A stretch of 32,301 nucleotides of DNA from an uncultured Anaerolineales bacterium (lineage in GTDB: Bacteria; Chloroflexota; Anaerolineae; UBA4142): the NCBI GenBank assembly GCA_903825565.1, contig CAIKBD010000520.1, positions 1 through 32,301 on the forward strand, read 5' to 3'. Below the pieces are notes generated by a model. It was not told the origin of the DNA. It did not search any database and saw only the letters and a program-made list of their open reading frames with translations. The translations under genes and the position numbers were made by a program. Shown here in pieces: positions 15,795-27,621 of this stretch (position 1 is the stretch's first letter; every line of letters starts with the position of its first letter).

Positions 15795-16757
15795 TCAGCG
15801 TTTGACAAATGGCAGGAAGGAGGCATTGCCACCGCCAATGGGTGTGCCGCCTCCGTTGCTGCACGTTTGCGTTTGCGTGTACGTGTCCGCCACCGTGCCA
15901 TCCGCGGCGATGAATTCGTACGTGATCGAATTGTCGCTTGCCGTTACGCGTTGCGCGCCGTACTTGGCGTTGTAGCGGACGACGCTCCCGGTGATGGGCG
16001 TGCCGAATGGATAGCGGCTATCGCCGCCCAACCCGTTCACCATGTACGGAAAGCCATTGCGAATGATGCGCTCGTAGTTGTGTTCGTGGCCCGCGAGAAC
16101 TACATGCGCGCCCCAACTTTGAAAGGGCCACTGCATCCAGGTGGACGATCCGTGCGAGGAGCCGGACGAGTACGGCGCGTGGTGCGTAAAGACAACCTTC
16201 CAACAACTGGTCGAAGCGGCGAGTTTGCCTTGCAACCAGCGTCCTTGCGTCGAAGTGCTCGACGTGCCATCCGGCTCGTAATCCCGATCACTGCTCACGG
16301 CGAAAAAGTGCACGGGCCCTTTGACGAAATCATAATAGCGTTCGTTGTTCGGCAAGACGAAATAATTTTTGTACGGGATTGCATCGGTGGTGTACCAATC
16401 GTGATTGCCGAGCGTCGGGAAAAACTTGTTTGTCGCCGCGCCTGCGCCGTAACTGCCGATGTAGGGATAGATGTAATCGTGATAGTATTGCCCGATGTTT
16501 TGGTCAATCGTTGCCGCCGAGCCGCTCCCCGAACCGCCATAGCCGTAATTATTGTCGCCGGTCGTGATGATGAAATCGGGATTCCAACTCTTGACGCGAT
16601 TGGCGACCGCCAGTTCATTCGTGCCTGCCAAGCCATAATCGCCGATCACCGCAAAGGTGATGGTTGCGCCCGGCGCGGCGACTGGCTCGGCGGATGCCGG
16701 CACAGCCAAAACGATCAGCCAGATGGTCAATATGATGAAGGCAAGTTTGTGGTTCAT
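15795..16757 (-). CDS. Secreted metallophosphoesterase (purple acid phosphatase-like)
   Basis: FAVIGDYG, TTGDNNYGYGG, PTLGNHDWYT, FTHHAPYSSG, VVLAGHEHNYERI; ATG at 16757 overlaps upstream stop (ATGA). Confidence 0.93.
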   Translation of the reverse strand: MNHKLAFIILTIWLIVLAVPASAEPVAAPGATITFAVIGDYGLAGTNELAVANRVKSWNPDFIITTGDNNYGYGGSGSGSAATIDQNIGQYYHDYIYPYIGSYGAGAATNKFFPTLGNHDWYTTDAIPYKNYFVLPNNERYYDFVKGPVHFFAVSSDRDYEPDGTSSTSTQGRWLQGKLAASTSCWKVVFTHHAPYSSGSSHGSSTWMQWPFQSWGAHVVLAGHEHNYERIIRNGFPYMVNGLGGDSRYPFGTPITGSVVRYNAKYGAQRVTASDNSITYEFIAADGTVADTYTQTQTCSNGGGTPIGGGNASFLPFVKR

Positions 16758-26716: not shown

Positions 26717-26759
26717 GAAAATTGGAGAGGCGAGCCGGCGGCTCGCCTCTCCAATTTTC
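26717..26759. terminator. Long hairpin downstream of VIT/VWA gene (20-bp arms, 3-nt loop)
   Basis: GAAAATTGGAGAGGCGAGCC (26717-26736)/GGCTCGCCTCTCCAATTTTC (26740-26759); extends further with one bulge. Confidence 0.7.
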
Positions 26760-26765
26760 TGGCAA

Positions 26766-26794
26766 TTGCCAACTTGGCATCGGTTGAGTATAAT
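26766..26794 (+). promoter_or_regulatory. Promoter TTGCCA-N17-TATAAT for the DsbA-like/GH3 operon
   Basis: -35 26766-26771, -10 26789-26794, exact 17-nt spacer. Confidence 0.7.
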
Positions 26795-26843: not shown

Positions 26844-26865
26844 CCACATTTTCGCGGGAGAAGAA

Positions 26866-27621
26866 ATGGAAGAACAAAAAACACCGCTCGCCGCTCCACT
26901 TGACGAGATCGAAGCGGCGTTGCCGCCGCCGTCGCGGTTGCGGCGCAAAAAATCGCCGTTGTTTCCCACATGGCTCGTCGCCGTGACGATGCTTTTCATC
27001 GGCATTGCGATTGGCTTTTTCGGGCGACCGTTCGTCGTGCCAGCGCCTGCGCCAACTGCCGGCGGCGCGTCGGGGCTGGCGCAATCGCTCGTGTCCCAGG
27101 TGCGGCATTTCAAAGGCAACGCGAACGCGCCGATCACGATCATCGAGTTCAGCGATTTCCAGTGACCGTACTGCTCAAAGTTTTATACCGACGCGGGACG
27201 TCGGATTGATGAAGTGTACGTCAAGACGGGGCAGGTTCGGTTTGGGTATATGCACTTTGTGTTTCTCGGCGACGAGTCTGGCTGGGCGGCGGAGGCGAGC
27301 GAGTGCGCCGACGAGCAAGGCAAGTTTTGGGAGTATCACGATCTCTTGTTCGTGCGGCATGGCGGCGAAAACCAGGGCGCGTTCAACAAAGCGAACCTGA
27401 AAAAATTTGCGGCGGATTTGAAATTGAACACGACGGCGTTCAACACCTGTCTCGATTCCGGCAAGTATACGTCCGTCGTCGCCGCGGAGACGCTGTCGTT
27501 GCAATCGTTGGGGGTGCAAAGCACGCCGACATTTCTCGTGAATGATCGCCCGGTGTCCGGCGCGCTACCGTTCGAAATGTTCCAGCAGTTTATCGAGGCG
27601 GAAAAAGCGAAACGCAAATGA
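26866..27621 (+). CDS. DsbA-like thioredoxin-fold protein with in-frame TGA at codon 100 (candidate selenoprotein, U-P-Y-C active site)
   Basis: MEEQKTP...TM...HFKGNANAPITIIEFSDFQ[TGA]PYCSKFYTDAGRRIDEVYVKTGQVRFGYMHFVFLG...ECADEQGKFWEYHDLLF...LGVQSTPTFLVNDRPVSGALPFEMFQQFIE; frame open on both sides of TGA 27163-27165. Confidence 0.8.
27188..27204 (+). promoter_or_regulatory. Candidate bacterial SECIS hairpin CCGACG-CGGGA-CGTCGG
   Basis: 6-bp perfect GC-rich stem, loop with Gs, loop begins 28 nt after the TGA. Confidence 0.5.

What the first reader, a model, noticed from the sequence alone, without database searches (positions are those of the whole stretch)
26866..27621. Candidate selenoprotein: DsbA-like oxidoreductase with TGA at the first active-site cysteine
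Two ORFs in the track (ending 27165 and starting 27214) are one continuous frame interrupted by a single TGA at 27163-27165. The TGA falls exactly where DsbA/BdbD-like proteins carry the first Cys of CPYC: EFSDFQ-[TGA]-PYCSKF. The rest is intact, including the TPTF cis-Pro loop, ECADEQGKFWEYHD and FNTCLDSGKY, with an ATGA-coupled downstream gene and a strong promoter. A random nonsense mutation hitting this one codon while everything else stays coding is less likely than Sec insertion. TGA is used as a normal stop elsewhere in the window (e.g. 15795-15797, 16754-16756), so genetic-code reassignment is unlikely. Sec-containing DsbA-like proteins are known as a class, but this one would be missed by standard annotation.
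Basis: partly seen in the sequence, partly recalled or inferred. Interest (0 to 1): 0.82.

Follow-up and report, generated by a model that had tools for sequence, protein, structure and literature searches.

The report
Selenocysteine DsbA/BdbD-like oxidoreductase gene
A gene that looks broken by a stop codon very probably encodes an intact membrane-anchored redox protein that reads that stop codon as the rare amino acid selenocysteine; this is a well-supported new member of an already known kind of selenoprotein.

Summary
Window 26866-27621 (+) is one 251-residue frame with a single internal TGA (27163-27165) at the first active-site position of a DsbA/BdbD-like protein (SDFQ-U-PYC). The Sec reading passed every test available. 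The host genome carries selA, selB, selD and tRNA-Sec (anticodon TCA), and its selD has its own TGA at the known Sec site. Two adjacent paralogs in the same genome have TGA at the same position. Of 92 family members examined, 61 have TGA exactly there and 31 a Cys codon; no other codon occurs. Directly downstream (27188-27204) lies a 6-bp/5-nt hairpin that meets the published bacterial SECIS model. It is complete in 54 of 61 TGA genes, with compensatory changes, and in 0 of 31 Cys genes. Selection downstream of the TGA is strongly purifying. TGA is also a normal stop here, so the code is not reassigned. It is not novel in kind: DsbA-like and DsbG-like UxxC selenoproteins, including a curated family (NF041057), are already described. 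This protein scores below that family's cut-off and has a membrane anchor and no lipobox. Selenium incorporation itself is not shown.

The parts
26766..26794 (+). sigma-70-like promoter match, TTGCCA-17-TATAAT
   Evidence: 11 of 12 consensus bases; 1 found versus 0.3 expected in shuffles. A consensus match only.
26856..26860 (+). likely Shine-Dalgarno GGGAG, 5 nt before ATG 26866
   Evidence: read from the sequence
26866..27621 (+). selenoprotein gene: membrane-anchored DsbA/BdbD-like thiol (seleno)oxidoreductase, 251 aa with Sec100
   Evidence: translation; Pfam Thioredoxin_4 E=2.1e-34 and DSBA E=8.2e-17; BdbD 3eu3 E=6.7e-21
26971..27024 (+). single hydrophobic N-terminal segment (residues 36-53) after RLRRKK; predicted membrane anchor with the catalytic domain outside the cytoplasm
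   Evidence: read from the sequence; no topology program was run
27163..27165 (+). in-frame TGA, codon 100 = predicted selenocysteine, first position of the UxxC motif
   Evidence: TGA in 61 and Cys codon in 31 of 92 examined family members
27172..27174 (+). TGC, Cys103, the resolving cysteine of U-P-Y-C
   Evidence: a Cys codon in 90 of 92 family members
27188..27204 (+). bacterial SECIS hairpin CCGACG-CGGGA-CGTCGG: 6 bp, 5-nt loop with G at loop position 2, loop starts 28 nt after UGA
   Evidence: MFE -8.1 kcal/mol; complete in 54/61 TGA relatives and 0/31 Cys relatives, with covariation
27523..27534 (+). TPTF cis-Pro loop (residues 220-223) of the thioredoxin fold
   Evidence: invariant among the three paralogs; aligns with the TPT of BdbD
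27619..27621 (+). TGA used as the real terminator of the same gene
   Evidence: next gene starts at ATG 27618 in another frame

Best explanation
Window 26866-27621 is an intact selenoprotein gene of a bacterium related to Anaerolineae (Chloroflexota). The UGA at codon 100 is decoded as selenocysteine by the host's SelA/SelB/SelD/tRNA-Sec set, directed by a SECIS hairpin that begins 22 nt after the UGA. The product is a DsbA/BdbD/DsbG-like thioredoxin-fold protein held in the membrane by one N-terminal segment, with its catalytic domain outside the cytoplasm. Sec100 acts as the attacking residue and Cys103 as the resolving residue (UxxC), next to a cis-Pro loop, exchanging disulfides with extracytoplasmic proteins. 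Shown by computation: the frame, the machinery, the conserved TGA/Cys column, the covarying hairpin, and purifying selection after the TGA. Inferred: that Sec is actually inserted, the membrane topology, and whether the protein works as oxidase, isomerase or reductase.
For: (1) One TGA in an otherwise open frame, at the first active-site Cys position. (2) Own genome has selA, two tRNA-Sec genes over the Rfam cut-off with anticodon TCA, full-length selB, and selD with its own TGA in the known UxxK position, SSCAG-U-ASK. (3) Two adjacent paralogs on contig C142 carry TGA at the same site. (4) Across the class, the column is TGA 61, TGC 16, TGT 15 and nothing else. (5) SECIS hairpin complete in 54/61 TGA genes and 0/31 Cys genes. 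Stem pairs swap, for example C-G/T-A/A-T at pair 1, C-G/T-A at pair 2, A-T/G-C at pair 4, G-C/T-A/A-T at pair 6. Shuffling the arms gives a mean of 16 complete stems (maximum 24) against 54 observed; sliding the arms by 1-3 nt gives 0. (6) It meets the published bSECIS constraints (PMC13188914): loop 5 nt, stem 6 bp, G in the first two loop positions, spacing 28 nt, MFE -8.1 kcal/mol. (7) After the TGA, pN is about a quarter to a third of pS against eight relatives, a lower ratio than before it in every case. (8) 10 of 11 same-family genomes with TGA copies have a clear tRNA-Sec.
Against: No protein-level or selenium evidence exists. The genome is a 530-contig assembly with 4.6% estimated contamination, so the sel genes lie on other contigs that could in principle be foreign. 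Seven TGA relatives lack the complete stem at this position (four have no candidate by a simple 6-bp rule; L075 is only one pair short). Eight of 43 TGA-bearing genomes, some 95-98% complete, show no clear tRNA-Sec. About 5% of all TGA triplets in the window have a similar hairpin by chance (40 of 796), so the hairpin in this one gene is weak alone; the weight is in the covariation.
Confidence: 0.96

Rival explanations
1. Pseudogene: a Cys codon mutated by one base to TGA and the gene is no longer translated past it.
For: Cys codons TGC and TGT are one step from TGA, and 31 of 92 relatives have Cys here.
Against: 61 relatives in many genera share the TGA at the same codon, mostly with no other stop. 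Non-synonymous change downstream of the TGA stays low, lower than upstream. The hairpin covaries only in TGA copies.
Confidence: 0.02
2. Assembly or sequencing error at 27165 (A for C or T).
For: The window comes from a fragmented genome assembly, and reads could not be inspected.
Against: The same TGA occurs in two paralogs of this genome and dozens of independent assemblies. The SECIS stem is complete here, and no Cys copy has it.
Confidence: 0.01
3. UGA is reassigned to an ordinary amino acid (Cys, Trp or Gly) in this genome.
For: TGA sits at a conserved Cys position.
Against: TGA ends this same gene (27619-27621) and six other gene-like ORFs in the window. In the genes looked at, internal TGA was seen only at the active-site position of this redox family and in selD. 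A dedicated Sec system is present.
Confidence: 0.005
4. Split gene or programmed early termination: the 99-residue N-terminal piece or the GTG-27214 piece is the real product.
For: The two ORFs exist mechanically.
Against: Neither piece is a complete fold: the GTG start lies 16 codons after the TGA and loses the UxxC motif and the first strand. Cys relatives encode one continuous protein.
Confidence: 0.005

Closest known systems
NCBIfam NF041057, Rcas_1661 family thioredoxin-like (seleno)lipoprotein; listed as 'DsbG-like protein, UxxC' in PMC13188914
   Same: Best curated hit over residues 71-245 (E=7.9e-41); Sec in UxxC; thioredoxin fold.
   Different: 140 bits against a cut-off of 190, so not a member by the curators' rule; a hydrophobic anchor and no lipobox in this copy.
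DsbA-like UxxC selenoproteins of the Sargasso Sea and Global Ocean Sampling sets (PMC1088965, PMC2398784)
   Same: Sec at the first active-site position, Cys homologs, bacterial SECIS directly downstream.
   Different: Those were marine metagenome sequences; this one lies in a lineage related to Anaerolineae with three Sec copies in one genome. Their sequences were not compared directly here.
BdbD (Bacillus DsbA-type protein, PDB 3eu3)
   Same: Nearest solved structure by sequence (E=6.7e-21, residues 83-246), with the catalytic motif and TPT loop aligned.
   Different: Cys instead of Sec.
E. coli formate dehydrogenase-type bacterial SECIS (from general knowledge, not aligned here)
   Same: Hairpin in the coding region just after UGA with G in a small apical loop.
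   Different: Here the loop is CG[GT]NN closed by 6 bp and begins 28 nt after UGA.

Membership tests
Bacterial selenoprotein gene | In-frame UGA aligned with Cys in homologs | tested here: met
   TGA 61, TGC 16, TGT 15 of 92
Bacterial selenoprotein gene | bSECIS: 3-9 nt loop, 4-16 bp stem, G in the first two loop positions, loop 16-37 nt from UGA, MFE <= -7.5 kcal/mol (PMC13188914) | tested here: met
   5 nt, 6 bp, CGGGA, 28 nt, -8.1 kcal/mol
Bacterial selenoprotein gene | SECIS supported by compensatory changes | tested here: met
   54/61 TGA genes have the complete stem; arm-shuffle maximum 24; slid arms 0
Bacterial selenoprotein gene | selA, selB, selC, selD in the genome | tested here: met
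Bacterial selenoprotein gene | Selenium present in the protein | not testable with these tools
   needs 75Se labelling or mass spectrometry
NF041057 Rcas_1661 (seleno)lipoprotein | Score above the curated cut-off (190 bits) | tested here: not met
   140.2 bits; no protein in this genome passes
NF041057 Rcas_1661 (seleno)lipoprotein | Lipoprotein signal (lipobox) | tested here: not met
   no lipobox by inspection, hydrophobic anchor instead; the C142 paralog P0003 does have LVAC
DsbA/BdbD-like thioredoxin-fold proteins (PF13462, PF01323) | Score above Pfam gathering cut-off | tested here: met
   119.5 against 23.2 and 62 against 25.6 bits
DsbA/BdbD-like thioredoxin-fold proteins (PF13462, PF01323) | CxxC-type motif plus cis-Pro loop | tested here: met
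   UPYC and TPTF, aligned with BdbD
DsbA/BdbD-like thioredoxin-fold proteins (PF13462, PF01323) | Dithiol oxidase or isomerase activity | not testable with these tools
   needs purified protein

The most novel reading that the evidence does not exclude
This lineage uses an expanded set of extracytoplasmic Sec-dependent Dsb proteins (three per genome here) with repeated Sec/Cys exchange, served by a duplicated decoding set: a second tRNA-Sec and a second SelB that lacks the C-terminal part expected to bind SECIS, which may decode a separate group of UGA codons.
Probability: 0.05. Interest if true: 0.6.

Novelty: new member of a known kind. Interest (0 to 1): 0.3.

Why it matters
It corrects an annotation that would show a broken gene or two fragments. 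It also adds a Sec-containing branch of extracytoplasmic disulfide-exchange proteins that a curated model misses at its cut-off. The family is a useful set for studying Sec/Cys exchange: the tree of 92 members needs at least 14 switches, at least 12 of them forced by well-supported branches, and the SECIS stem is absent from the Cys copies.

Tried and rejected
Folding 60 nt after the UGA as one piece gave an unremarkable energy (z -0.81), because the hairpin is short; the isolated hairpin and covariation carry the signal. Rfam at gathering threshold found nothing in the window. Presence of tRNA-Sec as a discriminator between TGA and Cys genomes failed: 35 of 43 TGA genomes and 32 of 37 Cys genomes have a clear one, so most of the class decodes Sec. 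The C82 'selB' match was rejected as EF-Tu-like. The single genome-contig scan named the best relatives as Anaerolineae/Chloroflexota, candidate phyla and archaea, but did not identify the exact source genome. Two scripts failed because gapped alignment rows were loaded by mistake.

Full report
Observation. The stretch 26866-27621 on the + strand is a single reading frame of 251 codons broken only by TGA at 27163-27165, codon 100. A GGGAG sequence sits 5 nt before the ATG and an 11-of-12 sigma-70-like site lies at 26766-26794. The frame ends with TGA at 27619-27621, overlapping the ATG of the next gene at 27618. The read-through protein matches Pfam Thioredoxin_4 (E=2.1e-34) and DSBA (E=8.2e-17) over residues 80-245. 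Its nearest solved relative is BdbD (3eu3, E=6.7e-21), with the catalytic motif and the TPT cis-Pro loop aligned. Codon 100 is the first position of the CxxC motif; Cys103 is retained. The N-terminus has a basic stretch followed by one hydrophobic segment (residues 36-53), so a membrane anchor with the catalytic domain outside the cytoplasm is likely (inspection only).

Machinery. The genome that holds the window (6.37 Mb, 530 contigs, 93% complete, 4.6% contamination) has selA (C7, E=6e-138), full-length selB (C39, E=1e-107), selD next to it (C39, E=2e-109), and two genes over the Rfam tRNA-Sec cut-off, both called tRNA-Sec with anticodon TCA by ARAGORN. The selD gene has its own in-frame TGA in SSCAG-U-ASK, which fits the UxxK motif given for selenophosphate synthetase in PMC13188914.

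Paralogs and relatives. The same genome has two adjacent paralogs on C142, 47% and 41% identical to the query, each with one TGA at the same position (SDFQ-U-PYC and SDFQ-U-SFC). A search of 396 genomes of the class found matches in 363. I examined 92 sequences: this gene, its two paralogs and 89 of the best class-wide matches. The codon aligned with codon 100 is TGA in 61, TGC in 16 and TGT in 15, with no other codon. A Cys codon at position 103 is present in 90 of 92. Other stops inside the aligned part occur in only four sequences, three of them near the ends of the alignment.

SECIS. At 27188-27204 lies CCGACG-CGGGA-CGTCGG, 6 bp around a 5-nt loop that begins 28 nt after the UGA, with MFE -8.1 kcal/mol. 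It meets the bacterial SECIS constraints quoted in PMC13188914. In 54 of 61 TGA sequences all six pairs form at exactly this offset; in the 31 Cys sequences none has more than four. Pairs exchange freely: pair 1 is CG, TA or AT, pair 2 CG or TA, pair 4 AT, GC or GT, and pair 6 GC, TA or AT. Dealing the 3' arms out anew gives on average 16 complete stems (maximum 24 in 2000 shuffles), and sliding the arms by one to three bases gives none. As a control, 40 of 796 TGA triplets in the window are followed by some such hairpin, so the structure in one gene alone would have been weak evidence.

Selection. Against eight relatives, pN downstream of the TGA is 0.18-0.24 with pS 0.57-0.84, and upstream pN is 0.28-0.43. 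The part after the TGA is therefore the more constrained part of the protein, which argues strongly against a dead gene.

Code reassignment. Of 25 gene-like ORFs chosen in the window, 7 end in TGA, this gene included. TGA is therefore also a normal stop.

Limits. tRNA-Sec presence does not separate TGA from Cys genomes: 35 of 43 and 32 of 37 have a clear one. Ten of the eleven same-family genomes with TGA copies have one; the exception is 70% complete. Eight TGA genomes, some 95-98% complete, show none, which may be missing sequence or unexplained. Seven TGA relatives lack the complete stem at this offset. Raw reads and protein data were not available.

What is known. Sec-containing DsbA-like and DsbG-like proteins with UxxC motifs were reported from the Sargasso Sea (PMC1088965), from bacterial genomes in 2006 (PMC1794560; 4 DsbA-like and 2 DsbG-like) and from Global Ocean Sampling (PMC2398784; several DsbA forms). 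NCBIfam NF041057, the 'Rcas_1661 family thioredoxin-like (seleno)lipoprotein', is the best curated match, but all three proteins of this genome fall below its cut-off (140, 121 and 115 against 190 bits). The protein is therefore a relative, not a certified member, of that family, and a new member of the known kind 'DsbA/DsbG-like UxxC selenoprotein'. On a tree of the 92 sequences the Sec/Cys label needs at least 14 changes, at least 12 forced by supported branches. That suggests repeated exchange, but the sample is of best matches, mixes paralogs, and the tree was not rooted.

Verdict. The finding is sound but of a known kind, so the interest is moderate to low.

Noticed in passing
G000:C188:10719-11890 (L198) and G000:C39:5518-7413 (L197): A second SelB, 61% identical to the full-length one over its first 377 residues, stops at about 391 residues without the C-terminal part; the contig continues beyond it.
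   Followed up: partly
G000:C347:3035-3126 and G000:C435:1037-1130 (L003, L004): Two different tRNA-Sec genes in one assembly, while most same-family relatives show one; duplication or a contaminating contig.
   Followed up: partly
L061, L074, L085, L088 (G150, G021, G135, G116): TGA-bearing relatives with no SECIS candidate by a 6-bp rule, although these genomes have tRNA-Sec. Possibly another SECIS form or a sequence error.
   Followed up: partly
L113 (G217) and L116 (G137): Same-family paralogs next to TGA copies have Cys at codon 100 but Ser at codon 103 (CPYS), suggesting a changed role for one of the pair.
   Followed up: no
window 26719-26757: A long near-perfect palindrome (AAAATTGGAGAGGCGAGCC..GGCTCGCCTCTCCAATTTT) between the upstream gene and this one; its core occurs nowhere else in the genome, so it is more likely a terminator than a repeat element.
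   Followed up: yes
G000:C142:12994-14423 (L014): The two tandem Sec paralogs differ in export signal: one has a hydrophobic anchor, the other a lipobox (LVAC).
   Followed up: partly
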